IMG/VR virus record: IMGVR_UViG_3300035670_001489
Location: 1 to 20,193 of that record
DNA from: a virus
Length of the DNA: 20,193 bases
Strand: one strand, 5' to 3'
The translations under genes were made by a program, and so were the position numbers. A model generated the notes under the pieces. It saw only the letters and a list, made by a program, of their open reading frames with translations. It did not search any database and was not told where the DNA came from. Positions 3,318-20,193 of the stretch are shown piece after piece. Position 1 is the stretch's first letter; each line of letters starts with the position of its first letter.

Positions 3318-4192
3318 AAGACCTTCTCCTGATTGATACGAATGCGGTTTTTCACCGCTCTCGCTCCGCCCTCACTCGCACGATGGGCGAGATGGTTACC
3401 TCTGCGGGGATTCCCGTAACCGGCACCTTCGGGACACTCAACACAATCTTTTCAATTATTGAGAAAGGGGACTACGATTCTGTTATCCCTTGCTACGACG
3501 CAGGTGGGAACTTTCGCAAAAAACTGAGCGATGATTATAAAGGTAATCGGGAAAAGGGCAGCATGGAGCACTATGCTGACATGTCTCTGTTGGTTCAGGA
3601 TGTTCTTCCCACACTTGGCTTCACTCCCGTAGGAGTCAAAGGTTGGGAAGCCGACGATATTATTGCCACAATATCTCGCAACTCTCCAGCTTATCGGGAA
3701 ATTCATATTCTGACGGTGGATGCTGATTTGCTTCAGCTTGTGGGGAACCGGGTTAAGGTCATTCTATTCAACAGTGCGAAGAAAGTAAAGACATACGGTA
3801 TTGACGAGGTTGTGGAGAAGTTCGGAGTGTTCCCCGCCGAAGTGAAATACCACAAGGCCCTCGCAGGGGACTCCAGTGACAATGTAGCTGGCATCAAAGG
3901 GATCGGCCCCAAAACCGCTGTCAAAATCATTGAGGAGTCCCGCCCGAGCGAAATCAATCCGGAATTTACGGGGGCTGACAGAATCTGTCTGCATCCGAAA
4001 GTAGCTCCCCATGCGGCCACCTTTCTCGGCAATTTGCGGTTGGTTACTCTGGAGAACGACGTTCCCGATCTGAATTGGTTTGCATCGAGTCCTCCCATTC
4101 CCCTTCATGTAGAAGCTTTGCTTGAGGGTCTCGAGTTCAAGAGTATGCTCAAGAGAAAAGGTAAGATTCTTCAGACACTGGGGTGTTCCTAA
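3314..4192 (+). CDS. 5'-3' exonuclease, FEN/PolA N-terminal domain type
   Basis: A 292-residue flap/5' exonuclease of the kind used in phage replication for primer removal and end processing. Visible acidic metal ligands are LLIDTN (D8), YDAGG (D62), the YKGNRE stretch (75-80), EADD (112-115), VDADLLQL (D136, D138) and GDSSDN (185-190). A helix-hairpin-helix, GIKGIGPKTA, spans residues 193-202. The domain order matches the 5' nuclease domain of DNA polymerase I and T5/T7 exonucleases. It overlaps the phosphatase gene by 4 bases, making a three-gene end-processing operon. No polymerase domain is attached. Confidence 0.93.
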   Translation: MKDLLLIDTNAVFHRSRSALTRTMGEMVTSAGIPVTGTFGTLNTIFSIIEKGDYDSVIPCYDAGGNFRKKLSDDYKGNREKGSMEHYADMSLLVQDVLPTLGFTPVGVKGWEADDIIATISRNSPAYREIHILTVDADLLQLVGNRVKVILFNSAKKVKTYGIDEVVEKFGVFPAEVKYHKALAGDSSDNVAGIKGIGPKTAVKIIEESRPSEINPEFTGADRICLHPKVAPHAATFLGNLRLVTLENDVPDLNWFASSPPIPLHVEALLEGLEFKSMLKRKGKILQTLGCS

Positions 4193-4320
4193 TGCGGTAC
4201 ATGTGCGTTCAAGTCCTATGGAAAGGAGGCAAAATCGAGTGGATCTGGGTGCCATGGGGAAAGAAATCTCTAGACGACATTCGCAATCGCGGAGGAGCTA
4301 TTCTGGGTTACCACGAATGA
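4192..4320 (+). CDS. Small hypothetical phage protein (42 aa)
   Basis: A 42-residue, Trp-rich basic protein (MRYMCVQVLWKGGKIEWIWV...). It begins in a TAATG junction with the exonuclease and ends in an ATGA junction with the next gene. The coupling on both sides is the main support. Function unknown. Confidence 0.55.
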   Translation: MRYMCVQVLWKGGKIEWIWVPWGKKSLDDIRNRGGAILGYHE

Positions 4321-4526
4321 GGGTTGCTCTACGAATCGCAAGTAACATTGGGCTAATTGCTGGTCAATGCGTCTTGCTTTTCGTCTCTCGTGATGTCGGT
4401 TTGGGTATCATTATATGCAGCAGCTTACTGTCGGTTCCGTTCTTCCTGAAAGAGAAGATGTGGGATGTCACGTTGCTGATAGCGTTTATGCAGGCAGTCA
4501 ACATTGTCGGTCTATTTGTAAGATGA
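4317..4526 (+). CDS. Small multi-span membrane protein (69 aa)
   Basis: A 69-residue protein with about three hydrophobic segments (roughly residues 7-24, 28-44 and 50-67) separated by short charged turns (SRD, KEKMWD). It would sit in the host inner membrane. It is coupled by ATGA to both neighbours. Possible roles such as superinfection exclusion or lysis timing cannot be decided. Confidence 0.6.
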   Translation: MRVALRIASNIGLIAGQCVLLFVSRDVGLGIIICSSLLSVPFFLKEKMWDVTLLIAFMQAVNIVGLFVR

Positions 4527-5221
4527 CTACTCGGAAAGTAAGAAGAAGATCAGCCAATCACCGCCACCTTGCTTCGGGGGTTAAGATTTCCCGTGAGCTG
4601 TATCCTCGCCCGGTGATTGACACTTTTCACTATCTTCAGGATAAATACCCGAAGAAGGGTTGGAAACGCCGCAGTCTTCGAAAGCAAGTTTGTTTATTGT
4701 ACATTCAGTGGATGGTTTATCCCACGAATGAGAACAAACACCTGCTGATTGAGACTGTCAAGAAGTGGAGAAAGAAGGAAAAGAACCGTCTTGGAGGCAA
4801 ACGTAGCGTTCTAGAGAAACTTTCTCGTAAATTCTTCAAGGAATGTCGCATCGAGAATAATAAGGAGAAGGTTAGGAAAGACCAAGGAGCAAGCGCACGT
4901 AGGCAGATAAAAGAGGGGAAGGGCAGGCATACACCTGAAATGAGAGCGTTATTTGGCACTTCGGAGTATGGTAGGTGGATGCAGAGTCACCAAAAGATTC
5001 CATCCAAGGCAAAACACTGGTGGGTGTTTTCCCCGGACGGGGAAGTGTTCGAGGTTTTTAACTTGGCTCAATTCGGAAGAGAGAGAGGATTAGACGGATC
5101 CCGGATAGGCCGAACAGCAAGGAATCCAGGGTGGCAATACAAGGGGTGGAAAGCTCGCGAGCGTAATGTGAATCTTGAGGGATTTACTCCTGGATTTGAA
5201 GACCAAAATGAAGATGGGTAG
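4523..5221 (+). CDS. Basic protein with a C-terminal homing-endonuclease-type DNA-binding module
   Basis: A 232-residue, strongly basic protein. Residues about 165-211 (WWVFSPDGEVFEVFN, then AQFGRERGLDGSRIGR and GWQYKGWK) look like the nuclease-associated helix-turn-helix module that follows HNH or GIY-YIG domains in homing endonucleases ('SPdGe..ev.Nl..F...~gl..s...r.a......kGWk'). I cannot find an HNH, GIY-YIG or LAGLIDADG catalytic motif in the N-terminal 160 residues, which are Lys/Arg-rich and helical. It may be a decayed homing endonuclease, an unfamiliar nuclease, or a DNA-binding regulator. It is coupled to the upstream membrane gene by an ATGA overlap. Confidence 0.7.
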   Translation: MTTRKVRRRSANHRHLASGVKISRELYPRPVIDTFHYLQDKYPKKGWKRRSLRKQVCLLYIQWMVYPTNENKHLLIETVKKWRKKEKNRLGGKRSVLEKLSRKFFKECRIENNKEKVRKDQGASARRQIKEGKGRHTPEMRALFGTSEYGRWMQSHQKIPSKAKHWWVFSPDGEVFEVFNLAQFGRERGLDGSRIGRTARNPGWQYKGWKARERNVNLEGFTPGFEDQNEDG

Positions 5222-5248
5222 AATCTAACTGTCCTACAAGAAACGACA

Positions 5249-6661
5249 ATGGTACGAGAAATTCATCTGAAAGAACTTTATGGTTTCGGCGATAAAGCCA
5301 ACCACGGGAAGTTTCCCACAAAGAAAGACTATGATGAGGTGATTGACGAAGATTGCGACGTTTATTTGCCAGATGGTTCCCTTGCGGTAGTGTTTCGTAA
5401 AGGTGCCATCAAGTCTCTTGCTTCTCTGGCGCCTGACTCAAAAGATTTCCAATATTGGAAATGGGCAAGTCGATCCCTATTGAGTGACCAACGAGGGTCG
5501 GCCGCAGGTAAAGAGTTGAGGACAAATGTCGAAATCAGGGTGACCGAGGGCCAGAAAGCGTTCTTTAGCGTTGCTACCAAAAAGGAAATTACGCTGGAAG
5601 AGGCTCTTGAGCTGACTGCGGATGTCACTCCGACTGTCACAACATACTTTGTTGGGAAGGCTGAGGCTGACGGTCTTGTAGATCTTGAGGAAGTGGAACG
5701 TTGGGATGCGATTGTTCGCAAGAAAGCGACACCCCCGAAGCAGAGGAAGGAGGCGACAGACAAAAGAAATGCAGCCAAACTGGCATGGTTTGATTGCTGG
5801 TTGCGCACAGTTTGGGCGAAAGCGGAAGACAAGATAGCTGCGGCGAAAGCGGCTAAGAAGCGTTATGTTACCGGAAACCCGCGCGGAAACAAGGCGTACT
5901 CGGCTGTGTTCGGCACAATCACTCGGTCAGGACGTACCCCGTTCGGCAGGTTGACGGCGCCCACATTGGCGAAATGGGGGGAGTTTCAAGAGCAGAAGAA
6001 AGTGTTCCACGAGGTTAACGAATTGCTCAAGCAGTATATGCCGGACCGGTGGGAACTGCTAAATGACCGTTTTAGCCAAGTTGCTGACGAGCGGTACAAC
6101 TTGTTTGGCACAGTGTTTACCAGCTTCACCATCAACTATAACTTTCAAGTTGCCCGTCATGTGGACGGCGCTAATTCTGACAAAGGAATGGCGGTGCTTT
6201 CTGCACTCGATAACGGAAAGTTTGAGGGGTTTGAGTTCGTGATGCATCCCCTCCGTCTCGCTTTTAACATGCGTCACGGTGATTTATTTATTGGGGACAA
6301 CAACGAGGTCGAGCACTCGATTACCGAGATGCGAAATGCCTCGGCTGACGCTGAGTCGATCACTTTTGTTTTCTACAGTAAAGATGCTGTGCTGACGCTG
6401 GACTCTCTAGAGTGCGAAACGTGCCGTCGAGAGTTTATGGAACACCTAGCAGTAAATCACCCTGAGCTTGGCACAGGTGAGGCTAAATGGAATGGCAGCG
6501 CCCCGGGGATGTGGGGTTCTCAGCTGTGGGAAGATTACAAGGCGAGGAGAACTGCCGAAGGTGACTTTGACTACACAAAGTGCTCTAACACGAACATTGC
6601 GGGCAAGCCTGACGAAGCCGATCTGGTGGTGAGGCAGCCGCAGTTGGCCAAGATAGGGTAA
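5249..6661 (+). CDS. TET/JBP-family 2-oxoglutarate/Fe(II) DNA base dioxygenase
   Basis: A 470-residue protein whose central-to-C-terminal part (about 285-380) matches the TET/JBP double-stranded beta-helix: FTSFTINYNFQVARHVDG gives the HxD iron motif (H304, D306), followed by G-K-F-E-G-F-E-F, MRHGDLFIGD and the distal iron ligand H356 (VEHSI), then ITFVFY. Family enzymes oxidise 5-methyl groups in DNA: T to 5hmU (JBP) or 5mC to 5hmC (TET). At the place where family members usually have the 2OG-binding Arg ('R.S.V.Y') this protein has S370. A CxxC (389-392) and a GMWGSQLWEDYKARR segment follow. The N-terminal 200 residues are charged and unassigned. Neighbouring thymine-hypermodification genes suggest thymine as the substrate. 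Confidence 0.87.
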   Translation: MVREIHLKELYGFGDKANHGKFPTKKDYDEVIDEDCDVYLPDGSLAVVFRKGAIKSLASLAPDSKDFQYWKWASRSLLSDQRGSAAGKELRTNVEIRVTEGQKAFFSVATKKEITLEEALELTADVTPTVTTYFVGKAEADGLVDLEEVERWDAIVRKKATPPKQRKEATDKRNAAKLAWFDCWLRTVWAKAEDKIAAAKAAKKRYVTGNPRGNKAYSAVFGTITRSGRTPFGRLTAPTLAKWGEFQEQKKVFHEVNELLKQYMPDRWELLNDRFSQVADERYNLFGTVFTSFTINYNFQVARHVDGANSDKGMAVLSALDNGKFEGFEFVMHPLRLAFNMRHGDLFIGDNNEVEHSITEMRNASADAESITFVFYSKDAVLTLDSLECETCRREFMEHLAVNHPELGTGEAKWNGSAPGMWGSQLWEDYKARRTAEGDFDYTKCSNTNIAGKPDEADLVVRQPQLAKIG

Positions 6662-6665
6662 GCTT

Positions 6666-6697
6666 GAGTACGGAGGAGGGTTTTCCTTGGCGGGTTT
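6666..6697 (+). terminator. Possible weak terminator or hairpin after the dioxygenase gene
   Basis: The 65-base gap between the dioxygenase and HNH genes is pyrimidine-rich and contains GGAGGA and TCCTCC arms that could pair, but there is no clean T-run. It could be a terminator or the edge of an inserted homing gene. Weak. Confidence 0.2.
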
Positions 6698-6726
6698 CCT
6701 TCCTCCCATAACTCGCCAAAAGTACT

Positions 6727-7479
6727 ATGAACAAGAATGTTTCTATTGTTGTTATAGACACAAGACCCTATCGAAAAATCGCTCAGGATAACTGGGGCCT
6801 TTCCAATGAGCAAATGAAAGGAATGCATGTTCATCACCGCATTCCCGTCAGTAAGGGTGGGACTAATGACCCTACTAACCTATACGTCTGTTCTCCCTCA
6901 TTTCACCGCTGGGTTTGGCATGGTGGTGAAATATGGGTTGAATGGGCAAACGAGGGAGCCAAAAGAGCGCACGCTAAGAGAGATGAATTAGGTAGGAGCA
7001 TTAATGGTATTAAAAATGCGGAAAGGTTAAATCTAGAAAAGGATGAGTTTGGCAGAAGTGTTAATGCTATTAAAGCATCTAGAAAAGCGCATGAAAAGAG
7101 AGATGAACTTGGTAAGAGCATAAATGCTCGTAGAGCCTCTCAAAAGGCTCATCAAGAAAAGGATGAGTTTGGTAGAAGTATCGTAGGCGTAAGGAACGGA
7201 GAAAGACTTCACAGGGAAAAGGATGATCAAGGAAAAAGCGTTGTTGCCATGAGATCCCATGCGGAAAAAGACGAGTTTGGAAGGAGTGTTCTAGCTGTTG
7301 AAAATGCTAAAAAGGTTCATGCGGAGAGAGATGAATTTGGAAGAAGTCTTCATGCAATGAAAAACAACAGCCAAATTTGGGAGTCAACGATAGATGGCTT
7401 TCGTAGTAATGCAGGAGGAGTTGCCACCCACAACAAAGCCAAAGGGTGGGACCCTAATGCGAGAGTAAAGATAAGTTAA
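6727..7479 (+). CDS. HNH homing endonuclease with seven KDEFGRS-type repeats
   Basis: A 250-residue protein. The HNH nuclease motif lies at residues 33-65: MHVHHRIPVSKGGTNDPTNL followed by YVCSPSFH, with H36/H37, N51 and H60 as likely catalytic and metal residues. Residues 84-217 hold seven imperfect repeats beginning (E/K)(K/R)D-(E/D)-x-G-(R/K)-S at 84, 104, 124, 144, 164, 180 and 200. The period is 20 residues, except the fifth repeat, which is 16. Such repeats follow HNH domains in phage and cyanobacterial homing endonucleases and probably contact DNA in tandem. The gene is more AT-rich than its neighbours and stands alone between two modification genes, as expected for a mobile free-standing endonuclease. 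Confidence 0.88.
   Translation: MNKNVSIVVIDTRPYRKIAQDNWGLSNEQMKGMHVHHRIPVSKGGTNDPTNLYVCSPSFHRWVWHGGEIWVEWANEGAKRAHAKRDELGRSINGIKNAERLNLEKDEFGRSVNAIKASRKAHEKRDELGKSINARRASQKAHQEKDEFGRSIVGVRNGERLHREKDDQGKSVVAMRSHAEKDEFGRSVLAVENAKKVHAERDEFGRSLHAMKNNSQIWESTIDGFRSNAGGVATHNKAKGWDPNARVKIS
6976..7362 (+). repeat. Seven coding tandem repeats (60-base period) in the HNH gene
   Basis: Codons for the KDEFGRS-type units recur every 60 bases (48 for the fifth), with variants of 'aaggatgagtttggnagaagt' spread over the array. This is a protein-level repeat; the DNA copies have diverged. Confidence 0.75.
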
Positions 7480-7539
7480 GAAACAATCGTTTACTATTTA
7501 GGGGTCAATGTTATATTCAGGTTACATTCTGAGTATAGC

Positions 7540-8808
7540 ATGGCCCTCTCTTTGCTGGAACGTCCTGAAATTTCCTCACCATATACCGATTGGCGTCTCC
7601 CTAAGAATCGCATTGAAGCTTTTTCCCGAGTGGCTCACGTTCGAGCTGTGGAGGGAGACACAGATCATTATCACTGTGCCCAAGTCATTTGCGATCTGAT
7701 GAACTTGTCAGACGAGGAAAAGGCTCTGTATTGTCTTTTCTTTGGTCAAAGTTATCGTAATCATTGGGCAATGATTGCGTTGCAGCTTGACCTTTACGGG
7801 ATGGGTCAAGAGCAATTGCAATCCTGGTCAGATGAAAACTGGATGCGTTTTAAGTTTGGTAATGACTCTAAGTGGAATGTGCGAAGGTTTCCGCATTTTG
7901 TTAAATCGCTGAAAGAAGTTGTCGGCTCCGGCAGCATTTATCAGCATTTTTATGCTGCTGCTCATGTTGGCAACACAAAAGAGAATTATTACTCTCTGAT
8001 TAGTGCCCTTGAGCAGGTTCATAGTCTAGGTAGAATGTGCTCGTGGTTGGCTGCACAAACTTTTTACGAACTTTTTAATTGGGATATTGATTACCACGAT
8101 CTGCAGCTATACCGAGAGGGCACTTGGAGCCAATATGATTCTTTATGCTATCTCTTCGATCGCCTTGATATTGCCAGAAAACAGAAGCTGCCCAACGGTA
8201 AGGTGCTAAAGTATAATCCAACTAGGAAAGACAAGGAGGTCATGTCAGAAAAGACCGTTATATTGATGAAGGAAGTAAACAAACGTCTTCCCTTCCATGC
8301 TGACATTTACTCTATTGAAAGCGTTTTGTGTGAATATCGGAAAACTAGCTATGGCCCTAAAATCAAAGAATTCACTTTCTGGACCTCAACAGAATTGGTA
8401 GAGCAGTTTACAGAGCTGAAAGCAGCTTGGGCTGACTATAAAGGCCCTGGCAAAGTAGACTGGACCCCGTACATCTCAGGGTTTATGACTAAAGGCTCGA
8501 ATCTGGTTGACAATTACGGCTATGACCGTTCTTATTTTGATGTAATGGTAAAATATGGCCTCAATCTCAACACCCACTATATTTACACAGACGAGCCCGA
8601 CGCTCACGCTCTTCTTAACCTGCCAAAACGAGCGCCCCAGGGTTTAGGCGAAATGCAGAAGATCTGGGATAGCCGCTTCACGGCTAAAGAGCAACAGGCC
8701 CTGAGAGAGAAGCACAACCCGGTTCGCTATTTGAAATTTAAAGACCGCAACCACCCAGCCTGGAAGCTGCTGAACGTGGACTACGCGTATGCCAAGGGCT
8801 TTGTCTGA
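7540..8808 (+). CDS. Alpha-glutamyl/putrescinyl-thymine pyrophosphorylase-like DNA transferase (ADDT/AADT type)
   Basis: A 422-residue helical protein. Its N-terminal 210 residues have the pattern I recognise from the glycosylase-like amino acid:DNA transferase superfamily in thymine-hypermodifying phages: YTDWRLPKNRIEAFSRV (15-31), DHYHCAQVICDLMNLSDEEK (42-61), a Y-x-L-F-F-G-Q-S-Y segment (64-72), the Y134-x-x-F helix and HSLGRMCSWLAAQTFYELF (161-179). In that family these enzymes displace the (pyro)phosphate of 5-phosphomethyl-dU in DNA with an amine or other nucleophile. The neighbours (base dioxygenase upstream, kinase downstream) fit this role. The assignment is from pattern memory, not alignment. 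The start at 7540 lacks a strong SD; the C-terminal 200 residues are unassigned. Confidence 0.7.
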   Translation: MALSLLERPEISSPYTDWRLPKNRIEAFSRVAHVRAVEGDTDHYHCAQVICDLMNLSDEEKALYCLFFGQSYRNHWAMIALQLDLYGMGQEQLQSWSDENWMRFKFGNDSKWNVRRFPHFVKSLKEVVGSGSIYQHFYAAAHVGNTKENYYSLISALEQVHSLGRMCSWLAAQTFYELFNWDIDYHDLQLYREGTWSQYDSLCYLFDRLDIARKQKLPNGKVLKYNPTRKDKEVMSEKTVILMKEVNKRLPFHADIYSIESVLCEYRKTSYGPKIKEFTFWTSTELVEQFTELKAAWADYKGPGKVDWTPYISGFMTKGSNLVDNYGYDRSYFDVMVKYGLNLNTHYIYTDEPDAHALLNLPKRAPQGLGEMQKIWDSRFTAKEQQALREKHNPVRYLKFKDRNHPAWKLLNVDYAYAKGFV

Positions 8809-8812
8809 GTCG

Positions 8813-8839
8813 TTTACGAGCTTGCCAGCAAGCTATAGT
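8813..8839 (+). promoter_or_regulatory. Putative promoter for the inositol synthase operon
   Basis: TTTACG at 8813-8818, a 15-base spacer, TATAGT at 8834-8839, then GAG-TTCA, the initiator-like motif seen at many promoters here. The spacer holds a perfect inverted repeat, AGCTTGC-CA-GCAAGCT (8819-8834), that overlaps the first base of the -10. The short spacer makes it suboptimal, so an operator or activator role for the repeat is possible. Confidence 0.5.
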
Positions 8840-8845
8840 GAGTTC

Positions 8846-8879
8846 ACGGTCCTACGACCCTCAATCAACGACCGTTTTC
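8846..8879 (+). terminator. Leader hairpin before the inositol synthase gene, attenuator-like
   Basis: ACGGTC (8846-8851) and GACCGT (8870-8875) can pair around an 18-base loop and are followed by TTTTC. If the promoter at 8834 is real, this hairpin begins almost at +1 and could be a leader structure or attenuator; otherwise it terminates upstream transcription. Confidence 0.35.
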
Positions 8880-8903
8880 ATTAAACTGACATACTGAGGC
8901 CCA

Positions 8904-10049
8904 ATGTCTAAGAAGATTCGCGTTGCCGTTGCTGGTGTCGGCAACTGCCTGTCCGCCCTTTACCAGGGTGTGCAATTCTATAAGGATCATGATGAGGATA
9001 ATATTCCCGGTGTGATGTTTGCTCGCATCGGCGGTTACCATCCCGCTGACATCGAGTTTGTTGCTGCTTTTGACGTTGATCGTCGTAAAGTTGGGCGTCC
9101 GTTGGGCGAAGCAATCTTCGCCGCCCCTAACTGCGCCCGTGTGTTTTGTCCTGATGTGCCAGCAGGGCCGATTGTTCAGATGGGTCCGGTGTTTGATGGC
9201 GTAAGCCAGCATATGCTCGAGTACCCTGAGCGTTACGGTTTCCGCATCTCGAATGCGGAGCCTGTGGACGTTGTTGAAGTGCTTCGAGAATCGAAGGCTG
9301 ACATCCTCATTAACTACTGTCCGGTGGGTAGCCAGATTGCCACTGAGTACTATGCAGAATGCTGCCTGAAAGCTGGCGTGGCTTTCCTCAATTGTATCCC
9401 GGTGTTTATTGCCAGCGATCCAATCTGGGAACAGAAGTTTATTGATGCGGGCTTGCCGATTGTGGGTGACGATATGCGTTCCCAAGTCGGTGCTTCGGTT
9501 ATGAGCCAGGTGCTGCAAGAACTTGCTTTTGATCGTGGTGCCGTTGTTAAATACCACCAACAACTCAACATCGGAGGAAACACCGATTTCGCGACAATGA
9601 TGAATCAAGACCGACTCTCATCGAAGAAGAAGTCGAAAGAGAATGTGATCCGTGCTCAAAACGATATCCGTGGTATCCCCGTCGATGATGAAGCCCTGTT
9701 TGCTGGGCCCAGCACCTTTATCCCTTATCTGAAGGACAACAAGGTAGCCTACTTTAAGATTGAGCTTGAGGGCTTTGGTGGTGCACCCATTGAAATTGAC
9801 GCCAAGCTATCGGTGCAGGACTCTGAGAACTCGGCAGGGGTAGTGATTGATGCGATTCGCTACCTGAAGGTGGCACGGGAAGAGGGTATCGTGGGTGCTT
9901 TGCGCGGTCCCAGCTGCTGGACACAGAAGACTCCCCCTCAGCAGATGATGTATGCTGATGCCAAGGCAGAGTGCGAGGCTTTTGCGGTCCGCAACCTGGG
10001 AGCGCTCAAGGCTCAGAATACTTTCTCAACTGGCCAGGTGACTGTCTGA
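8904..10049 (+). CDS. ino1: Myo-inositol-1-phosphate synthase (inositol-3-phosphate synthase)
   Basis: A 381-residue, full-length enzyme that converts glucose-6-phosphate to inositol-phosphate using NAD+. It aligns by eye along its length with the actinobacterial/archaeal-type synthase (e.g. mycobacterial Ino1): NAD motif VAGVGNCLSALYQG (9-22), FVAAFDVDRRKVG (52-64), SNAEPVDVV (116-124), NYCPVGSQ (137-144), IASDPIWEQKF (169-179), GDDMRSQVG (188-196), NIGGNTDF (222-229) and the lysine cluster SSKKKSK (239-245). All expected catalytic regions are present, so it is probably active. GAGG precedes the ATG. Synthase genes are uncommon in phages; the flanking transferase, HAD and kinase genes suggest supply of an inositol compound for DNA modification. 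Confidence 0.96.
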   Translation: MSKKIRVAVAGVGNCLSALYQGVQFYKDHDEDNIPGVMFARIGGYHPADIEFVAAFDVDRRKVGRPLGEAIFAAPNCARVFCPDVPAGPIVQMGPVFDGVSQHMLEYPERYGFRISNAEPVDVVEVLRESKADILINYCPVGSQIATEYYAECCLKAGVAFLNCIPVFIASDPIWEQKFIDAGLPIVGDDMRSQVGASVMSQVLQELAFDRGAVVKYHQQLNIGGNTDFATMMNQDRLSSKKKSKENVIRAQNDIRGIPVDDEALFAGPSTFIPYLKDNKVAYFKIELEGFGGAPIEIDAKLSVQDSENSAGVVIDAIRYLKVAREEGIVGALRGPSCWTQKTPPQQMMYADAKAECEAFAVRNLGALKAQNTFSTGQVTV

Positions 10050-10079
10050 TCCGTGTATATTCCCCTTTGGGCTTTCTTT

Positions 10080-10442
10080 ATGGAACCAATAAATTGTTTT
10101 GATTTCGACGGCGTAATTTACTACGGCAAAGACTCTCCTGGTGTCTTCCCTGGGCCCAACGACATTATCATCACTGGCCGTTCTTTTGAAGAACGAGACA
10201 AGACGGTCGCCTGGTGTGAGAAGTTCGGTATTCACAACCAAATTTACTTTAGCCAGGTGCCTGAGCACCTGAAGACTCGAGAAATTTCTGGCTACCATAA
10301 AGCCCTCACTCTACGGGAACTCCTCAAGACTCACCGCATCGAGAAATTCTTTGAGGATGACGAAAGGCAGAAGGAAATTATTGAGGCTTTGGTTCCAGAA
10401 GTTAAGGTAGTTCACCTCGTTCACTCACTCACTCGCAAATGA
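10080..10442 (+). CDS. Small HAD-superfamily phosphatase
   Basis: A 120-residue HAD-like hydrolase. Motif I is CFDFDGVI (nucleophile D8, acid D10), motif II IITGRS (about 29-34), and an acidic FFEDDERQ near residues 90-97 serves as the metal-binding motif IV. It has no large cap domain. A GTG at 10053 would add nine residues; the ATG at 10080 puts the nucleophile at the usual distance from the N-terminus. It lies 30 bases after the inositol synthase and overlaps the kinase by ATGA. It could remove phosphate from inositol-3-phosphate or from a (deoxy)nucleotide; the first is inferred only from context. Confidence 0.82.
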   Translation: MEPINCFDFDGVIYYGKDSPGVFPGPNDIIITGRSFEERDKTVAWCEKFGIHNQIYFSQVPEHLKTREISGYHKALTLRELLKTHRIEKFFEDDERQKEIIEALVPEVKVVHLVHSLTRK

Positions 10443-10936
10443 AAATCGTTGGTCTCTGCGGCGAGCCCGCATCTGGCAAAAGCACCATCATGCGTGCTTT
10501 CATCTCCAACCTCAAGGACACAGGCACCGTGAAGAAAGAAGGGTTGGTGGTCTACACAGAATACCCAGAGGAAAAGGTCTTCGTTGCGGGCATCTACGAT
10601 GATGCCGTCTTTAGCGGAACCGACCGCACCGCAAAATCTTGTGGTCCCAAGTACCGCGAGTGGCTCGATGCGAAGAATGCCGATCCTGCCTACGATGACT
10701 GGGAGTTCTATTGGGAGGGCGAACGCTTCTCCAACAGCAAATTCTTCGACTTTTTCTACGACCAGTGCCCTCACGTTACTACGTATTTCCTGGAGGCTGA
10801 CCCTCAGCTGCTGGACGAGCGCAATGCGAGTCGAAGCAACCAAAATCCCTCGTGGCGCAAGGGTATGGCGACGCGGATGCGTAACCTGCGGGAAGGCTAC
10901 CCAGTTAAAGTAGTGCAGCAGGGTTTCACCCTGTGA
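10439..10936 (+). CDS. P-loop kinase resembling 5-hydroxymethyl-dU DNA kinase
   Basis: A 165-residue P-loop kinase with Walker A GEPASGKST (8-16). It also has GIYDDAVFSGTDR (51-63), EGERFSN (93-99) and a C-terminal R/N-rich lid (ERNASRSNQNPSWR). The G-x-Y...F-(S/G)-G-T-D-R and EG-(D/E)-R-x-x-N elements are ones I associate with phage kinases that phosphorylate 5-hydroxymethyl-2'-deoxyuridine in DNA ahead of hypermodification. A general nucleotide kinase is the alternative. It is translationally coupled to the HAD gene and is the last gene of the modification operon, followed by a terminator-like hairpin. Confidence 0.72.
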   Translation: MKIVGLCGEPASGKSTIMRAFISNLKDTGTVKKEGLVVYTEYPEEKVFVAGIYDDAVFSGTDRTAKSCGPKYREWLDAKNADPAYDDWEFYWEGERFSNSKFFDFFYDQCPHVTTYFLEADPQLLDERNASRSNQNPSWRKGMATRMRNLREGYPVKVVQQGFTL

Positions 10937-10940: not shown

Positions 10941-10963
10941 GGTAGGGCGGTTAACCCTACCTT
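10941..10963 (+). terminator. Terminator-like hairpin at end of the modification operon
   Basis: GGTAGGG (10941-10947) and CCCTACC (10955-10961) form a perfect 7-bp stem with loop CGGTTAA, followed by a pyrimidine-rich stretch but no solid T-run. It begins 4 bases after the kinase stop codon. Bases 10943-10963 repeat 2110-2130 exactly. Confidence 0.6.
10943..10963 (+). repeat. 21-base repeat, copy 2 (intergenic)
   Basis: Identical to 2110-2130. A 13-base core, AGGGCGGTTAACC, recurs a third time in inverted orientation at 12740-12752. Confidence 0.7.
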
Positions 10964-14152: not shown

Positions 14153-14572
14153 ATGCCTGTCACTCTTACTACCAATTGGAAAGAAACCCTGGAGCCTCTG
14201 ACCGTAGAGGTCATTGAGGCTTTTCTTGAGAACAACTACGCCCTCGACGACATGTTGGTGTTCGTGGACGAGCACAACGAAAAAGACTTCCGCTTCTTCT
14301 ACGAAGACTATGTGAGGCTGGGTGAGGAATTTGGGTTTGAGCCCGTGGATGCTTTCATCAATGAGGTGGCCGATGTGGACGACTTGGATCGCTTTGAACG
14401 TGCCTACATCGGTGAGTACTCATCGCCCGCTCGCATGGCAGAGGACTATCTGTCCAGCGAGGTTGACCGTCTGAGCTATATGATTGTTGTGGATTGGGAG
14501 GCGACCTCCGAATATTTACTGGACCACGATGTGGACCGCCAGGGTGATTTCTATTTCCGGTGTTCGTACTGA
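14153..14572 (+). CDS. ArdA-like antirestriction protein
   Basis: A 139-residue, very acidic protein. The segments FGFEPVDAFINEV (60-72), DLDRFERAYIGEYSSPARMAED (77-98), YMIVVDWEATSEYLL (109-123) and GDFYFR (131-136) match ArdA antirestriction proteins, elongated DNA mimics that occupy the DNA-binding surface of type I restriction enzymes. It is a little shorter than many ArdA proteins (about 160-180 residues), with a shortened N-terminal domain. It has its own TTTACA-N17-CATACT promoter, suggesting early expression on infection. The leader reads CCCGAACCTTCC before the ATG, with no SD. Confidence 0.83.
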   Translation: MPVTLTTNWKETLEPLTVEVIEAFLENNYALDDMLVFVDEHNEKDFRFFYEDYVRLGEEFGFEPVDAFINEVADVDDLDRFERAYIGEYSSPARMAEDYLSSEVDRLSYMIVVDWEATSEYLLDHDVDRQGDFYFRCSY

Positions 14573-14891: not shown

Positions 14892-15061
14892 AAGGTGTTA
14901 TCCTCGTCTGTCTCTTCTACGGTTCCCTTCCTTTCCTTGTTCTGGCTCTCTTCTCTCTCTTGTCTTCAGGCTTCCCTGTGTTTCCTTTGATTGTTGGTGG
15001 GGTCATGGCTGCTGTTGCGCACCGAGGTAAGGGTCAGAGGGGGAGTCACTACCAGAGGTGA
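14888..15061 (+). CDS. Small two-span membrane protein (57 aa)
   Basis: A 57-residue protein with two hydrophobic segments (about 3-26 and 29-44) and a basic C-terminus (HRGKGQRGSHYQR) that would stay in the cytoplasm. Its start overlaps the previous stop. Function unknown. Confidence 0.6.
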   Translation: MKGVILVCLFYGSLPFLVLALFSLLSSGFPVFPLIVGGVMAAVAHRGKGQRGSHYQR

Positions 15062-15071
15062 CCCTCCCTCC

Positions 15072-15100
15072 TTTACAAGCGAGCCAAAAGGCCGTATAGT
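15072..15100 (+). promoter_or_regulatory. Sigma-70-like promoter TTTACA-N17-TATAGT
   Basis: TTTACA at 15072-15077, 17-base spacer, TATAGT at 15095-15100, then TCA-TTCA. AGGTGACC at 15056-15063 occupies the same distance as the AACTGGAC box of other promoters, but matches it only loosely. It drives the DUF932 gene. Confidence 0.75.
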
Positions 15101-15152: not shown

Positions 15153-15986
15153 ATGGCTACCTTCGCAATCACTAACGACCTCAACTGGCAAGTGGAGAAG
15201 CGTGCTCTCTCTTTCCTCGGCAACGATGGCTCTCCAGTTGCAATCAACGAAAAAGTAGCTGTGGTCCGTAGTGACACTGGCGCCTTCCTCGGTGCAGTCA
15301 GCCCTGACTACGAGGTTGTTCAGAACAGTGTGTTGCTTGGTATGGTCCAGCCACTGGTTGACGAAGGGTTGCTGGAAATGAGGAATGTTGGCTACCTGAA
15401 TGGCGGCGCCCGTGTGTTCGTTCAAGCTGTTGTGAACGAAGAGTTTACTGTGGCGGGTGATTCTTATAAGTCTTTCATCACTTTGCTTAACGGTCACATT
15501 GGTAATAACTCCGTGGCAATTGGCCCCAGCAACGTCCGGGTCATTTGTGGCAACACTTTCTCCATGTCCTACAGCCAGATTGGAGAGAAGTTTCGTCATA
15601 GTGCTGGCGTAAATGAGCGTGTGCTGGAGAGCAAGGCTGTGCTGGAATATGTAAATGGTGCAATGGCGCAGTATGCCAAGTATATGGAGCCGCTGGCTCT
15701 GGCACCCTGCAGCAGCGTTCAGTTTCGCAATGCCCTGGAGGTTATCTACGACAAAGATGTGAAGGATATGCGCGCTTCTTTCGTCGACCAGCTTAACTCG
15801 CTGTTTTATAGTGGAGCGGGGAATGAAGGTAAGACATACGCGGATGCCTTTAACGCTGTGACCGACTACAATAGCAACCAGTCACGGAAGACGGCCGAGG
15901 GTCGCTTTAACTACAGCAACTTTGGTTCGGGTGCTCGGGTGGCCCAACGGGCGATGGCAGTGCTGTCAGAGTTGGCTGCTGTCTGA
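15153..15986 (+). CDS. DUF932-family phage/plasmid protein
   Basis: A 277-residue protein matching the DUF932 (phage/plasmid-like) family. Diagnostic stretches are NEKVAVVRSDTGAFLGAVS followed by DYEVVQN, GGARVFVQA, LLNGHIGNNSVAIGPSNVRV and ICGNTFSMS, then KFRHSAGVNERVLESK. The family is common on phages and plasmids; its biochemical function is not established. It is slightly shorter than many members but complete. It has a strong promoter and a structured leader, and a terminator follows. No SD is visible (leader ends GAAACATC). Confidence 0.85.
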   Translation: MATFAITNDLNWQVEKRALSFLGNDGSPVAINEKVAVVRSDTGAFLGAVSPDYEVVQNSVLLGMVQPLVDEGLLEMRNVGYLNGGARVFVQAVVNEEFTVAGDSYKSFITLLNGHIGNNSVAIGPSNVRVICGNTFSMSYSQIGEKFRHSAGVNERVLESKAVLEYVNGAMAQYAKYMEPLALAPCSSVQFRNALEVIYDKDVKDMRASFVDQLNSLFYSGAGNEGKTYADAFNAVTDYNSNQSRKTAEGRFNYSNFGSGARVAQRAMAVLSELAAV

Positions 15987-17221: not shown

Positions 17222-17236
17222 TCAAGGTCACCTTGA
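17222..17236. repeat. 15-base palindrome TCAAGGT-C-ACCTTGA
   Basis: Perfect 7-base arms about one centre base, just upstream of the AAGTGGAC box and promoter at 17238-17282. It is a candidate operator for a dimeric regulator. Confidence 0.5.
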
Positions 17237-17237
17237 G

Positions 17238-17282
17238 AAGTGGACCTAGGGGCTTTACAACGCCACCGCAAGGCGGCATACT
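17238..17282 (+). promoter_or_regulatory. Composite promoter: AAGTGGAC box, TTTACA-N17-CATACT
   Basis: AAGTGGAC at 17238-17245 lies exactly 31 bases before CATACT (17277-17282). This promoter also has TTTACA (17254-17259) with a 17-base spacer containing CGCC...GGCG. TGG-TTCA follows the -10. It drives the NUMOD4/HNH gene. Confidence 0.75.
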
Positions 17283-17306
17283 TGGTTCAAGTTTACCCCT
17301 CGCCTC

Positions 17307-17711
17307 ATGTCCCCGGTCACCTGGAAGACGATACCTGGCTTTAGCCGCTATGAGGCAAACGAGCTGGGCGAAATTCGCAACCAGCGGACAGGTAAAGTTC
17401 TAAAGACCTGGGCGAAGAGCGCGAGATGGAAGCGGCAGAAAATCCAACTGGTAGACGACGAAGGCCAAGTCAAAGGCGGTCTTACTTTGTCCCGTATAGT
17501 TTGCGCTGCGAAAGAAGAGCGCTGGCCGGAAGAATATGAGCACACGTGTCACATTGACGGAGATTGCACTAACGACCAAATGTATAACCTTCGCTTCTCA
17601 GACATTATAAATAATGCCATCGATGAAGTTGAAGTAGGAAGGAAGGAAACCTCGAAGCAATACGTGGAGCTTGCGATTGAGAGGTTGCTGGCGCTGAAGG
17701 AGCAGCTTTAG
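17307..17711 (+). CDS. NUMOD4/HNH-type homing endonuclease-like protein
   Basis: A 134-residue protein. W6-K-x-I-P-G-F-S-R-Y-E-A-N-E-L-G-E-I-R-N (6-25) followed by TGKVLK is a typical NUMOD4 module. HTCHIDGDCTNDQMYNLRFS (79-98) with II-N-N matches the HNH_3 consensus 'H.DGd..NN...NLrw.t...N', with H82 and N88/N94 as likely catalytic residues. The first HNH His may be H79. It is short for the family but has both parts. Unlike many homing endonucleases it has a strong dedicated promoter. Confidence 0.8.
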   Translation: MSPVTWKTIPGFSRYEANELGEIRNQRTGKVLKTWAKSARWKRQKIQLVDDEGQVKGGLTLSRIVCAAKEERWPEEYEHTCHIDGDCTNDQMYNLRFSDIINNAIDEVEVGRKETSKQYVELAIERLLALKEQL

Positions 17712-17735
17712 GGGTCACCTTGCCAACCGGCCTCC

Positions 17736-17764
17736 TTGCCTTTTCTCCGAAAAGGCGGTATATT
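17736..17764 (+). promoter_or_regulatory. Promoter TTGCCT-N17-TATATT overlapping a 7-bp hairpin
   Basis: TTGCCT at 17736-17741, 17-base spacer, TATATT at 17759-17764. GCCTTTT (17738-17744) and AAAAGGC (17750-17756) form a perfect stem occupying most of the promoter, so a terminator of the upstream HNH gene and the promoter of the next gene may be one element. Confidence 0.6.
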
Positions 17765-17809
17765 TAGTCCATGGGCGGTGCTTTCGCTGCCCGCAACCCC
17801 CGAACCTCC

Positions 17810-18031
17810 ATGTCCCAGACTGCTTTGCCTTGCTACACTGTTTACGACCAAGAGTGCGAGTACGAGCCTGCGGCGAGAGTTACCACCCTCTCCTGGTTTA
17901 ACATCGCTCGCTGCGCCCGGGAGCGCATGCACGCCAACTGCCACGATATTCACCGTTGGCGTGGAGAGCGCCGGTCGTTCTACTCCAGCCTCCGGGCAAT
18001 GCAGGTGGACACGAAGGAGTTGCTCGACTGA
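17810..18031 (+). CDS. Small hypothetical protein (73 aa)
   Basis: A 73-residue protein (MSQTALPCYTVYDQECEYEP...), with four Cys and an Arg-rich helical C-terminal half (RCARERMHANCHDIHRWRGE). The ATG at 17810 follows the local leader motif CCCCGAACCTCC; the earlier in-frame ATG at 17771 lies at the predicted transcription start and is rejected. Unit ends at a strong terminator. Confidence 0.7.
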   Translation: MSQTALPCYTVYDQECEYEPAARVTTLSWFNIARCARERMHANCHDIHRWRGERRSFYSSLRAMQVDTKELLD

Positions 18032-18040
18032 TTTTTCCAG

Positions 18041-18067
18041 GGGGGCTTTACAACAAGCCCCCTTTTT
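18041..18067 (+). terminator. Strong Rho-independent terminator with TTTACA spanning its loop
   Basis: GGGGGCTT (18041-18048), loop TACAAC, AAGCCCCC (18055-18062), then TTTTT: perfect 8-bp stem. The loop junction contains TTTACA (18047-18052), the local -35 hexamer, but the nearest -10-like TAAACT (18073-18078) is 20 bases away. Confidence 0.92.
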
Positions 18068-18072
18068 CACGG

Positions 18073-18078
18073 TAAACT
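18073..18078 (+). promoter_or_regulatory. Possible -10 hexamer TAAACT
   Basis: TAAACT followed by TTC-TTTG, before the 18103 gene whose leader ends CTCGGAACC. No good -35 at normal spacing and no AACTGGAC box 31 bases upstream. Low confidence, but the upstream terminator implies a promoter is needed here. Confidence 0.35.
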
Positions 18079-18102
18079 TTCTTTGTTCTTCACCTCGGAA
18101 CC

Positions 18103-18378
18103 ATGCCTACAATCCGCGAGCTTTACTCCGTGCTTCGTGCTACCAAGGGCCATATCACCGACGACTGCCGGGCGCACGAATTTGATGAGGAACCAGGGAT
18201 CCTTTTGACTGTGGGAATCTCGGAAGACGGTTCCTGGGACTACCAGCTTGGATGCAACGAGTACCACGGGGCTGCCTACTTTCACCCTCACTGGGTGGTT
18301 CAGTCGGTTTATCGCAACAGCAACTGCCGCCTGCTCGCCCGCGAAATTCGCTCCGAGTGGCCTACAGCCGGTTGCTAA
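18103..18378 (+). CDS. Hypothetical protein (91 aa)
   Basis: A 91-residue protein with a helical start (MPTIRELYSVLRATKGHI), a strand-rich centre (ILLTVGISEDGSWDYQLG) and many His/Tyr residues (YHGAAYFHPHW) near 55-64. The pattern suggests a small mixed alpha/beta accessory protein. No SD. The AACTGGAC box of the next promoter directly overlaps its end. Not recognised. Confidence 0.72.
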   Translation: MPTIRELYSVLRATKGHITDDCRAHEFDEEPGILLTVGISEDGSWDYQLGCNEYHGAAYFHPHWVVQSVYRNSNCRLLAREIRSEWPTAGC

Positions 18379-18422
18379 ACTGGACGCCGGGCGGCTCACG
18401 CTGCCCCTCCCCCATGTAAACT
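18378..18422 (+). promoter_or_regulatory. AACTGGAC-N31-TAAACT promoter
   Basis: AACTGGAC at 18378-18385, 31 bases, TAAACT at 18417-18422, then GCT-TTCA. The spacer contains a GGGC...GCCC inverted repeat. No -35 hexamer at the usual place (18394-18399 is GCTCAC), so the box probably replaces it. Confidence 0.65.
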
Positions 18423-18448
18423 GCTTTCAGTTCACCCCCGAACCAACC

Positions 18449-18685
18449 ATGCTTTCACCCTTTTCTCCCTACGCCTCCATCCTTGGTCTTCCCATCGACG
18501 ACGTTCCTGTCGTAGAGGGTAACATGCAGTACTTTGATGCGCCAGGCGATTTCTTCCTCGCGTACGACGTTGCTGCTTTGCGTTCTTGCGTGGTGGATTC
18601 CAACGGCTCCCGCCTGACAGAATGGCGCTGGAACCCTGGTTACGCGGTTTCTGACCTGAAAGAGGTAGTCCAGTCGAACAAGTGA
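18449..18685 (+). CDS. Hypothetical protein (78 aa)
   Basis: A 78-residue acidic protein (MLSPFSPYASILGLPIDDVP...), ending SDLKEVVQSNK. The ATG at 18449 follows a CCCCGAACCAACC leader; the longer frame from 18248 overlaps the previous gene and is rejected. Function unknown. Confidence 0.7.
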   Translation: MLSPFSPYASILGLPIDDVPVVEGNMQYFDAPGDFFLAYDVAALRSCVVDSNGSRLTEWRWNPGYAVSDLKEVVQSNK

Positions 18686-18695
18686 CCCTAAGGGG

Positions 18696-18724
18696 TTTAC
18701 AAGCGGCTCGGAACCGTGTATAGT
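18696..18724 (+). promoter_or_regulatory. Sigma-70-like promoter TTTACA-N17-TATAGT
   Basis: TTTACA at 18696-18701, 17-base spacer, TATAGT at 18719-18724, then TGG-TTCA. A loose version of the box, AAGTGACC, lies at 18680-18687, again 31 bases before the -10. Confidence 0.75.
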
Positions 18725-18730
18725 TGGTTC

Positions 18731-18769
18731 AGTTGGAGGTTGAGCCCTCTCTACATGCTCCCTCCAACT
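18731..18769 (+). promoter_or_regulatory. Leader hairpin, 9-bp perfect stem
   Basis: AGTTGGAGG (18731-18739) pairs with CCTCCAACT (18761-18769) around a 21-base loop, starting right at the predicted transcription start and followed by a T/C-rich stretch. It could be an attenuator or an mRNA-protecting structure. Confidence 0.5.
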
Positions 18770-18800
18770 GCTTTCTTTCTGTTCCTTCGCTTTCCCAACC

Positions 18801-19139
18801 ATGTTCACCGCTACCGCTTCCAACCCTGCTTTCCCTCCCGTTGACTCCCTGCTTTCGTTCCTTCGCAACGTCAACTACCGGAAACTTGCCAACGATTTGA
18901 TTACTTTTGCTGCTACTTTCTGTGCGATTGTAGTTGCTGTCTCTCTCTTTGTTTACCGCAACTCTCGCGCCTTTTGGGCTGCTCACGGCGAAGAGATTAC
19001 TTTGCGCTTCGAGCTTTTCATCGAGTGGCTGGTTGCCGCCATCGAAAAGACCCACCAGGCTGGTATGGCGTTCCGCCCCGTTGCCGTTCGCCTTTTCAAC
19101 CGCTCGGCTGATTGGCTGTTTTACCAGCTGACTGCTTGA
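18801..19139 (+). CDS. Single-span membrane protein (112 aa)
   Basis: A 112-residue protein with a soluble N-terminus, a hydrophobic segment at about 33-52 (LITFAATFCAIVVAVSLFVY) and a helical, amphipathic C-terminus ending DWLFYQLTA. Probably anchored in the host membrane. No family recognised. It has a strong promoter and a leader hairpin, and an AACTGGAC box follows 12 bases after its stop. Confidence 0.7.
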   Translation: MFTATASNPAFPPVDSLLSFLRNVNYRKLANDLITFAATFCAIVVAVSLFVYRNSRAFWAAHGEEITLRFELFIEWLVAAIEKTHQAGMAFRPVAVRLFNRSADWLFYQLTA

Positions 19140-19151
19140 GGTCAGACGCTA

Positions 19152-19196
19152 AACTGGACTCAGGGCGGTCCGACGCCGCCCTCTAACCTGTATACT
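19152..19196 (+). promoter_or_regulatory. AACTGGAC-N31-TATACT promoter with 7-bp hairpin
   Basis: AACTGGAC at 19152-19159, 31 bases, TATACT at 19191-19196, then TAG-TTCA. AGGGCGG (19162-19168) and CCGCCCT (19176-19182) form a perfect hairpin between box and -10. No -35 hexamer is present. Confidence 0.7.
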
Positions 19197-19219
19197 TAGT
19201 TCAACCCCGCAAACCACCC

Positions 19220-19492
19220 ATGACTCAAACCACCTACCACGTTATTTGCTTTGGCACTTTAGACGCTGAAGACGGAACCACCTACAGCCAGCCTTTCACC
19301 TACGACGACCGCACCGAGGCTGAGTACCGCTTTGGTTACTTTAATAAGGGCGACCGCCACGAAGCTGTTTTCCTTGTGGCTGAAACCGGCGATTCTTTCA
19401 CTGTTGTCAAGTGCTCTAGCGGCGACCGGGCTCACCTGGTAAAGGATGGCCCCGGTGCTTTTGCGCTGCTGTCCTCCGGGGTGCTGGCTTAG
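19220..19492 (+). CDS. Hypothetical protein (90 aa)
   Basis: A 90-residue acidic, beta-rich protein (MTQTTYHVICFGTLDAEDGT...), with FTVVKCSSGDRAHL near the C-terminus. Single-gene unit with its own AACTGGAC-type promoter. Not recognised. Confidence 0.72.
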   Translation: MTQTTYHVICFGTLDAEDGTTYSQPFTYDDRTEAEYRFGYFNKGDRHEAVFLVAETGDSFTVVKCSSGDRAHLVKDGPGAFALLSSGVLA

Positions 19493-19504
19493 AGTCAGAT
19501 CGCA

Positions 19505-19549
19505 AACTGGACGCCAGCGGCCCCGTTTCGCTGCAGCACCCTGTAAACT
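19505..19549 (+). promoter_or_regulatory. AACTGGAC-N31-TAAACT promoter with inverted repeat
   Basis: AACTGGAC at 19505-19512, 31 bases, TAAACT at 19544-19549, then ACC-TTCA. CAGCG (19515-19519) and CGCTG (19529-19533) form an inverted repeat at the same relative position as in the neighbouring promoters. Confidence 0.65.
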
Positions 19550-19574
19550 ACCTTCAGCTACAACAACCTGAACC

Positions 19575-19925
19575 ATGTCCCTCTCCACCAAACTTCAAGC
19601 CCGAGTCAACGCCCGCCGCCAGCAGCGTGAGGCAACCCGGAAACGCCATCGTAACCTTCACAACATTGGTGCTGCTTTAGGCTTGACCGCTGGCATCGCC
19701 GCTTTTGCTTTCGGCGCGCAAACCCCTACCAACAGCCTACCCCCGGTTCCCGCCGTTAGCGTGGAGGCTGCTGTCTCTCAACCAGCGGCACCCCCGGCCG
19801 TAAACATCCACGACGTGAAGCCTGGAACCCGTTGCAACCCCTACGTTAACGGTGTTTACATCGGCGAGCTTTGCGGCGACCACGACGCGTTTCAGGGTCG
19901 CCTGGACCGTGCGTTCGCCGACTAA
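19575..19925 (+). CDS. Membrane-anchored Pro/Ala-rich protein (116 aa)
   Basis: A 116-residue protein with a strongly basic, Arg-rich N-terminus (residues 10-27), one transmembrane or uncleaved signal segment (31-48), a Pro/Ala/Val-rich linker (50-76) and a small C-terminal domain with Cys87 and Cys100 that could form a disulfide. By the positive-inside rule the C-terminal domain would be periplasmic. Function unknown; an envelope-facing role is inferred. Confidence 0.7.
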   Translation: MSLSTKLQARVNARRQQREATRKRHRNLHNIGAALGLTAGIAAFAFGAQTPTNSLPPVPAVSVEAAVSQPAAPPAVNIHDVKPGTRCNPYVNGVYIGELCGDHDAFQGRLDRAFAD

Positions 19926-19937
19926 GGTCAATCTTAG

Positions 19938-19982
19938 AACTGGACCTTGAAAGCCCCGGGGCGGCCTGCCCCGCGTTAAAAT
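19938..19982 (+). promoter_or_regulatory. AACTGGAC-N31-TAAAAT promoter with hairpin
   Basis: AACTGGAC at 19938-19945, 31 bases, TAAAAT at 19977-19982, then ACT-TTCG. CGGGGC (19957-19962) and GCCCCG (19968-19973) form a 6-bp hairpin just upstream of the -10. Confidence 0.65.
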
Positions 19983-20010: not shown

Positions 20011-20193
20011 ATGGCAATCGCACCTTCCGGCGGCCCTTCCCCCATCGCCCTCCAAGCTGCCGCTGAGGCCCGCGCTGCGGGGTATCCTCACCTCGAGCTG
20101 GCAATTTACACTTTCGATGCTTTCAACTACGGGAAGTTTCAAACCGCCGACGCCCTCATGGAAGCCCTGATGGAGGCTGAGCTGCCCGAGGAG
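20011..20193 (+). CDS. N-terminal part of a hypothetical protein (partial)
   Basis: Open from an ATG at 20011 to the window edge, 61 residues, Ala-rich (MAIAPSGGPSPIALQAAAEA...). It has the same leader style (CCCCGAAACAACC before the ATG) as its neighbours. Function unknown; the end lies outside the window. Confidence 0.65.
   Translation, partial: MAIAPSGGPSPIALQAAAEARAAGYPHLELAIYTFDAFNYGKFQTADALMEALMEAELPEE

What the first reader, a model, noticed from the sequence alone, without database searches (positions are those of the whole stretch)
17238..19982. New promoter element: AACTGGAC (or AAGTGGAC) box exactly 31 bases before the -10 at five promoters
Boxes at 17238, 18378, 19152, 19505 and 19938 are each followed after exactly 31 bases by CATACT, TAAACT, TATACT, TAAACT and TAAAAT. 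Four of the five have no -35 hexamer. The identical spacing across divergent spacer sequence means the box acts on polymerase at about -51 to -44. This suggests a phage or host activator, or a modified sigma contact. Looser versions, AAGTGACC (18680) and AGGTGACC (15056), sit at the same distance at two TTTACA promoters.
Basis: seen in the sequence. Interest (0 to 1): 0.82.

Follow-up and report, generated by a model that had tools for sequence, protein, structure and literature searches.

The report
Palindromic activator site at cyanophage promoters

Summary
Observation confirmed: five AASTGGAC-N31-NAWAMT in the window against 0.01 expected; the two "looser" TGACC copies sit at the same 31. 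The box is the right half of a 20-bp palindrome, RGWCASTT-N4-AASTGDCM (about -63 to -44, centre -53.5). In the 68-kb relative G002 the same architecture recurs at about ten promoters. Unbiased scans of cyanophage genomes peak at one geometry: dyad gap 10, distance 31 (21 hits; next 8). The full operator plus TATAAT occurs at 120 or more places in IMG/VR, almost all at 30-32 bp, mostly in contigs with T4-like cyanophage proteins. In 13 Synechococcus/Cyanobium genomes it is not above control, so it is phage-specific. About 90% of operator promoters lack a good -35. Best reading: operator of a dimeric activator, probably phage-encoded, replacing the -35 contact; the protein is unknown. The T4-like form may be the "novel regulatory element" of Syn9 early genes (Doron et al. 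2016); that paper was not held, so identity is untested. Probably new: the palindrome, its exact geometry, a TGGAC variant outside T4-like phages, and a second operator (GGTWAACC) found only at 25-27, 37-38 or 47-49 bp, i.e. helical-turn steps.

The parts
15044..15063 (+). operator AGTCACTACCAGAGGTGACC (right half 15056-15063), -35 TTTACA 15072-15077, N31 to -10
   Evidence: perfect GTCAC-N8-GTGAC dyad; kept in relatives G031 and G002
15095..15100 (+). -10 TATAGT of the DUF932 gene (15153-15986)
17226..17245 (+). operator GGTCACCTTGAGAAGTGGAC (box 17238-17245), -35 TTTACA 17254-17259
   Evidence: kept in G031
17277..17282 (+). -10 CATACT, before the HNH gene 17307-17711
18366..18385 (+). operator AGCCGGTTGCTAAACTGGAC (left half weak), no -35
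   Evidence: the G031 orthologue has a perfect TCCAC-N8-GTGGA dyad at N32
18386..18416 (+). 31-bp spacer with GC-rich hairpin
   Evidence: MFE -13.8, z -2.4
18417..18422 (+). -10 TAAACT, before ORF 18449-18685
18668..18687 (+). operator GTCCAGTCGAACAAGTGACC, -35 TTTACA 18696-18701
   Evidence: orthologous promoter in G002 keeps box and N31; in G031 the operator is perfect but at N41
18719..18724 (+). -10 TATAGT, before ORF 18801-19139
19140..19159 (+). operator GGTCAGACGCTAAACTGGAC, no -35
19160..19190 (+). 31-bp spacer with hairpin AGGGCGGTCCGACGCCGCCCT
   Evidence: MFE -14.8, z -2.8
19191..19196 (+). -10 TATACT, before ORF 19220-19492
19493..19512 (+). operator AGTCAGATCGCAAACTGGAC, no -35
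19544..19549 (+). -10 TAAACT, before ORF 19575-19925
19926..19945 (+). operator GGTCAATCTTAGAACTGGAC, no -35
19977..19982 (+). -10 TAAAAT, before the ORF starting at 20011

Best explanation
Each site is a 20-bp palindromic operator (consensus RGWCASTT-N4-AASTGDCM) for a dimeric activator. From about -63 to -44 it contacts host RNA polymerase (alpha C-terminal domain or sigma region 4) and compensates for a weak or missing -35 at a sigma70-type -10, 31 bp downstream. It switches on groups of small phage genes. Shown: the palindrome, the fixed geometry, its recurrence across cyanophages, its absence as a regulon from hosts, the usually poor -35, and its position after stop codons and before start codons. 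Inferred: that a protein dimer binds it, that the effect is activation, that the protein is phage-encoded, and that the genes are early or middle class. The GC-rich hairpin often nested between operator and -10 is probably the terminator of the gene upstream, sharing the same space.
For: Unbiased geometry: the top of the (dyad gap, distance) table is (10,31), 21 hits, next 8. An operator with up to 2 mismatches peaks at d=31 (24), 30 (6), 32 (3); reversed control flat. IMG/VR, the TATAAT pattern: of 170 matches allowed at 26-36, 108 at 31, 31 at 32, 18 at 30. Leave-one-genome-out scan: window 7 against 0.2 at displaced spacings, G002 11 against 1.3, S-PM2 15 against 5.4, Syn9 12 against 4.3. 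Selected on the right half alone, the left half still shows C in 17 of 21 at the symmetric position. Orthologous promoters keep the box while the spacer drifts. Hosts: operator 1 match in 13 genomes against 2 for the control; operator plus -10 3 against 6. Only 16 of 170 operator promoters have a -35 of 5/6 or better, none 6/6. One G031 copy sits at 41, a helical turn further, and the sister element GGTWAACC occurs almost only at 25-27, 37-38 and 47-49, as expected for proteins acting from one face of the helix.
Against: No transcription start, footprint or expression data were available. The binding protein is not identified. S-CBWM1 shows no clear enrichment (3 against 1.0) and G001 none although related. 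Three of the window's seven promoters also have a decent TTTACA -35. Half-sites vary (TGACC, TGTC, TGGC, TGGAC), so one or several proteins could be involved. In some T4-like genomes the excess at 31 over displaced spacings is modest (S-SCSM1 8 against 6.1).
Confidence: 0.72

Rival explanations
1. The same operator is read by a host transcription factor present before infection, which would let it drive the earliest genes.
For: If the T4-like version is the Syn9 early element (memory of an abstract), early transcription must start with proteins already in the cell or injected. One phage genome carries several half-site variants.
Against: 13 Synechococcus/Cyanobium genomes, including WH7803, hold essentially no such sites: operator 1 against 2 in the control, operator plus -10 3 against 6. 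The consensus does not fit the cyanobacterial regulators I know, e.g. NtcA GTA-N8-TAC (consensus cited in PMC3037559).
Confidence: 0.2
2. It is a repressor operator: a dimer bound at -63 to -44 silences these promoters at some stage.
For: Palindromic operators are as typical of repressors as of activators; three window promoters have a good TTTACA.
Against: About 90% of operator promoters have no good -35 and none is 6/6. The site lies upstream of the core promoter at a strictly fixed spacing, whereas repressor sites usually overlap -35/-10 or the start and vary in position.
Confidence: 0.1
3. It is a copied recombination or terminator cassette (like the PeSL promoter/stem-loop cassettes of T4-like phages), conserved by descent and not by protein binding.
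For: It lies between genes, often with a terminator-like hairpin nested before the -10 (mean z -1.7 over 33 spacers, about half strong).
Against: Spacers diverge while half-sites and distance stay; about half the sites have no strong hairpin; a variant one helical turn away exists; palindromic consensus with variable N4 centre.
Confidence: 0.07
4. Chance alignment of short motifs seen after the fact.
For: The pattern was defined post hoc in one 20-kb window.
Against: Recurs with the same geometry in independent genomes and in at least 120 IMG/VR stretches with flat controls.
Confidence: 0.01

Closest known systems
Early-gene regulatory element of Synechococcus phage Syn9 and T4-like cyanophages (Doron et al. 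2016, ISME J, doi 10.1038/ismej.2015.210)
   Same: From memory of its abstract: a novel element controlling early genes, abundant and conserved in T4-like cyanophages. Syn9 and IMG/VR contigs with T4-like cyanophage proteins carry the present operator.
   Different: Text not held, so motif, position and temporal class could not be compared. The window is not a recognisable T4-like phage and uses TGGAC half-sites.
P2-type late promoters activated by Ogr/Delta
   Same: Imperfect dyad centred near -55, sigma70-type -10, no good -35, phage-encoded activator (own knowledge).
   Different: P2 sites read TGT-N12-ACA; here the order is reversed (GWCA...TGWC). No Ogr-type gene was seen among the window proteins scanned.
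T4 middle promoters (MotA box, AsiA)
   Same: Phage activator site replacing the -35 contact of host sigma70.
   Different: The MotA box sits near -30; this operator ends at -44 and is a palindrome. T4-like cyanophages are reported to lack motA and/or asiA (PMC5780444).
PeSL promoter/stem-loop cassettes of T4-like phages (Arbiol 2010, Comeau 2014; cited in PMC4503421)
   Same: Compact intergenic combination of promoter and stem-loop.
   Different: Here the stem-loop lies inside the promoter, between operator and -10, is not always present, and a conserved palindromic operator is added.

Membership tests
Syn9-type early regulatory element (Doron et al. 2016) | same motif and position relative to mapped early start sites | not testable with these tools
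   paper not held; no transcription data
Syn9-type early regulatory element (Doron et al. 2016) | abundant and conserved in T4-like cyanophages | tested here: met
   184 IMG/VR loci at d 29-32, 168 with T4-like cyanophage proteins
P2 Ogr-type activated promoter | dyad centred near -55, weak -35 | tested here: met
   centre -53.5 from the consensus and N31; -35 poor in about 90%
P2 Ogr-type activated promoter | TGT-N12-ACA consensus | tested here: not met
   consensus RGWCASTT-N4-AASTGDCM, half-sites in the opposite order
T4 MotA middle promoter | MotA box about 12 bp upstream of -10 | tested here: not met
   element ends 31 bp upstream of -10
NtcA-activated cyanobacterial promoter | GTA-N8-TAC | tested here: not met
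   dyad is GWCA-N10-TGNC; NtcA consensus as cited in PMC3037559
PeSL cassette | intergenic promoter plus stem-loop | tested here: inconclusive
   hairpin in about half of the spacers
host sigma70 -10 promoter | TATAAT-like -10 shortly before the start codon | tested here: met

The most novel reading that the evidence does not exclude
Cyanophages carry an unidentified, phage-encoded dimeric activator that reads a 20-bp palindrome at -53.5 and drives many of their small-gene promoters, with lineage-specific half-sites; the freshwater relatives of this window have in addition a second, unrelated activator reading GGTWAACC at helical-turn distances, and promoters can swap one operator for the other.
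Probability: 0.45. Interest if true: 0.8.

Novelty: new variant of a known kind. Interest (0 to 1): 0.6.

Why it matters
T4-like cyanophages are reported to lack the T4 middle-promoter genes motA and/or asiA (PMC5780444), so how they order their gene expression is open. A precise 20-bp operator with fixed geometry gives a direct bait for the missing regulator, a genome-wide way to predict its promoters from sequence, and a test of whether freshwater and marine cyanophages share a regulator. The exact spacing and the helical-turn steps of the second operator are unusually clean evidence for activator-to-polymerase contact read from sequence alone.

Tried and rejected
Sigma contact or extended -35: rejected because the element is a palindrome. 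Host regulon: strict patterns not enriched in 13 hosts. Near-identical phage records: none in INPHARED. Regulator candidates: Pfam/PHROG scans of the window and shared relatives' proteins gave no clear HTH regulator. A small AbrB/MazE-like protein is shared by G002 (37370-37603, -), S-PM2 and Syn9 gp92; all are below Pfam's cut-off, and the Pfam search found none in S-SM2, Bellamy, S-SCSM1 or S-SKS1 (tblastn gives a weak S-SKS1 match): kept only as a weak lead. Such proteins are annotated as MazE antitoxins in S-CREM1 (PMC9964418). A scan with protein 14153-14572 found no IMG/VR relatives. The key papers (Doron 2016; Arbiol 2010; Comeau 2014) were not held, and citing papers did not give the motif. 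The presence of -35 cannot be contrasted well with 'other TATAAT', because most of those are not promoters.

Full report
What the window is. The window is a whole 20,193-base IMG/VR record with no near match in the phage collection. Its DUF932 protein (15153-15986) is 45% identical to one in Synechococcus phage S-CBWM1 and 58-84% identical to proteins in other IMG/VR contigs. It carries small unknown ORFs at 14-20 kb and DNA-modification-like genes further left. It is therefore a cyanophage fragment by relationship, related to S-CBWM1-like phages.

The observation. The five boxes and the 31-base spacing are exact; two more boxes (15056 and 18680) sit at the same distance. The expected number by chance is 0.01. 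Because the pattern was found post hoc, I looked for replication.

The box is half of a palindrome. In the relative G002 (68,565 bases, DUF932 70% identical), about ten promoters carry the same architecture, typically GGTCA-N10-TGACC-N31-TAAACT or TATAAT. Selecting promoters only by the right half and the -10, the symmetric left position is C in 17 of 21. Perfect dyads at distance 31 occur in the window (15044-15063), G031, G002, S-SKS1, S-PM2 and Syn9. From 46 sites the consensus is RGWCASTT-N4-AASTGDCM.

The geometry is not chosen by hand. Scanning all gaps 4-16 and distances 10-59 in nine genomes, the top cell is gap 10, distance 31, with 21 hits against 8 for the next. With up to two mismatches the distance histogram is 31:24, 30:6, 32:3, all others 2 or fewer, and the reversed operator is flat. 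With a matrix trained without the genome being scanned, distance 31 beats displaced distances in the window (7 against 0.2), G002 (11 against 1.3), S-SM2 (10 against 3.7), S-PM2 (15 against 5.4) and Syn9 (12 against 4.3), weakly in S-SCSM1, and not in G001.

It is widespread in cyanophages. A first IMG/VR scan for GGTCA..TGACC with -10 and TTCA gave 20 stretches; the ones at exactly 10 and 31 were G002 and marine contigs in which the promoter precedes a cobS-like gene. The same gene's promoter in S-SCSM1, Bellamy, S-SM2, SynMITS9220M01 and S-SKS1 has boxes such as AACTGTCC, AAGTGACC or AAGTGTCA at 31 (Syn9 at 30). Of 184 loci at 29-32, 168 encode homologues of T4-like cyanophage proteins.

It is not a host regulon. 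In 13 Synechococcus/Cyanobium genomes, including WH7803, the operator is found once against twice for the control, and operator plus -10 three times against six for the controls.

Conservation between orthologues. The DUF932-gene promoter and the promoter of ORF 18801 keep box and 31 bp between window and G002 although the proteins are 70% and 52% identical and the spacers differ. In the close relative G031 the 18378 site is a perfect TCCAC-N8-GTGGA at 32, and the 18680 site a perfect GGTCAC-N8-GTGACC at 41, one helical turn further. The 19152 promoter has been replaced there by one with TTTACA in a terminator-like loop.

Mechanism. A palindrome means a dimeric protein (inference). Its place upstream of the core promoter, its fixed distance, and the poor -35 in about 90% of 170 operator promoters (none 6/6) favour activation over repression. 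Centre -53.5 is close to the geometry of P2 Ogr-type promoters (own knowledge), though the motif differs. Absence from hosts favours a phage-encoded protein. No HTH candidate was found; an AbrB/MazE-like protein shared by G002, S-PM2 and Syn9 is a weak lead.

The hairpins. About half of the 31-bp spacers hold a strong hairpin (mean z -1.7, 33 spacers), in some T4-like phages clearly terminator-like, e.g. GGGGGTCATGTGACCCCCTTTT in Bellamy. I read them as the previous gene's terminator nested in the promoter. This resembles PeSL cassettes but is not required.

A second operator. Upstream of TATANT promoters in the window's relatives lies the palindrome GGTWAACC. Pooled over seven genomes the distances fall at 25-27 (9), 37-38 (5) and 47-49 (20), with one exception at 74; control octamers gave 0-4 scattered hits. 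Steps of about one helical turn are the signature of a factor acting from one face of the DNA. The DUF932 promoter uses this operator in G001, L010 and L019, and the first operator in the window, G031 and G002, so promoters can exchange operators.

Prior art and limits. The abstract of Doron et al. 2016 (from memory) reports a novel element controlling Syn9 early genes, conserved in T4-like cyanophages. The T4-like form seen here may be that element; I could not read the paper. What is probably new is the palindromic form and exact geometry, the TGGAC variant and extension to S-CBWM1-related phages, and the second operator. No start sites or binding data exist here; temporal class and protein are inferred.

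Noticed in passing
window 2116-2123 and 10949-10956; G001, G003, G008, G002, G031: A second palindromic element GGTWAACC lies at 25-27, 37-38 or 47-49 bp before TATANT in relatives (34 of 35 pooled; controls scattered), i.e. in helical-turn steps. It looks like the operator of another activator in this phage group.
   Followed up: partly
window 15044-15100 against L006 (G001), L010, L019: The orthologous DUF932-gene promoter uses the GTCA..TGAC operator in window, G031 and G002 but GGTWAACC in other relatives: an operator swap.
   Followed up: partly
window 17307-17711: HNH/NUMOD4-type gene sits directly behind the 17238 promoter; in G031 that promoter drives the next gene instead, so the endonuclease gene seems to have inserted and taken over the promoter.
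   Followed up: partly
window 18040-18078; several places in L191 (about 3850-5150): A third promoter type: TTTACA in the loop of a terminator-like hairpin (GGGGGGCTTTACAACAAGCCCCC) followed by a -10, replacing an operator promoter in the relative.
   Followed up: no
window 2189-10936: DNA hypermodification-like set: TET/JBP oxygenase (5249-6661), ADDT amino acid:DNA transferase (7540-8808), P-loop nucleotide kinase (10439-10936), AAA_33/zeta-type kinase (2189-2638), with an inositol-phosphate synthase (8904-10049).
   Followed up: no
window 6963-7347: Three diverged copies of a 97-nt repeat inside the HNH ORF 6727-7479.
   Followed up: no
window 14153-14572: Anti-restriction-like protein (phrog_36653), also in S-PM2 at 22340.
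   Followed up: no
G002 37370-37603 (-); Syn9 gp92; S-PM2 about 1967-2110: Small AbrB/MazE-like proteins; possible regulator or antitoxin.
   Followed up: partly
L034, L036, Syn9 44796-44826 and 49100-49130: Some operator promoters carry three near-repeats of ACTCTGCCCC or CTTGCCC with about 11-bp period between operator and -10, possibly a further binding site.
   Followed up: no
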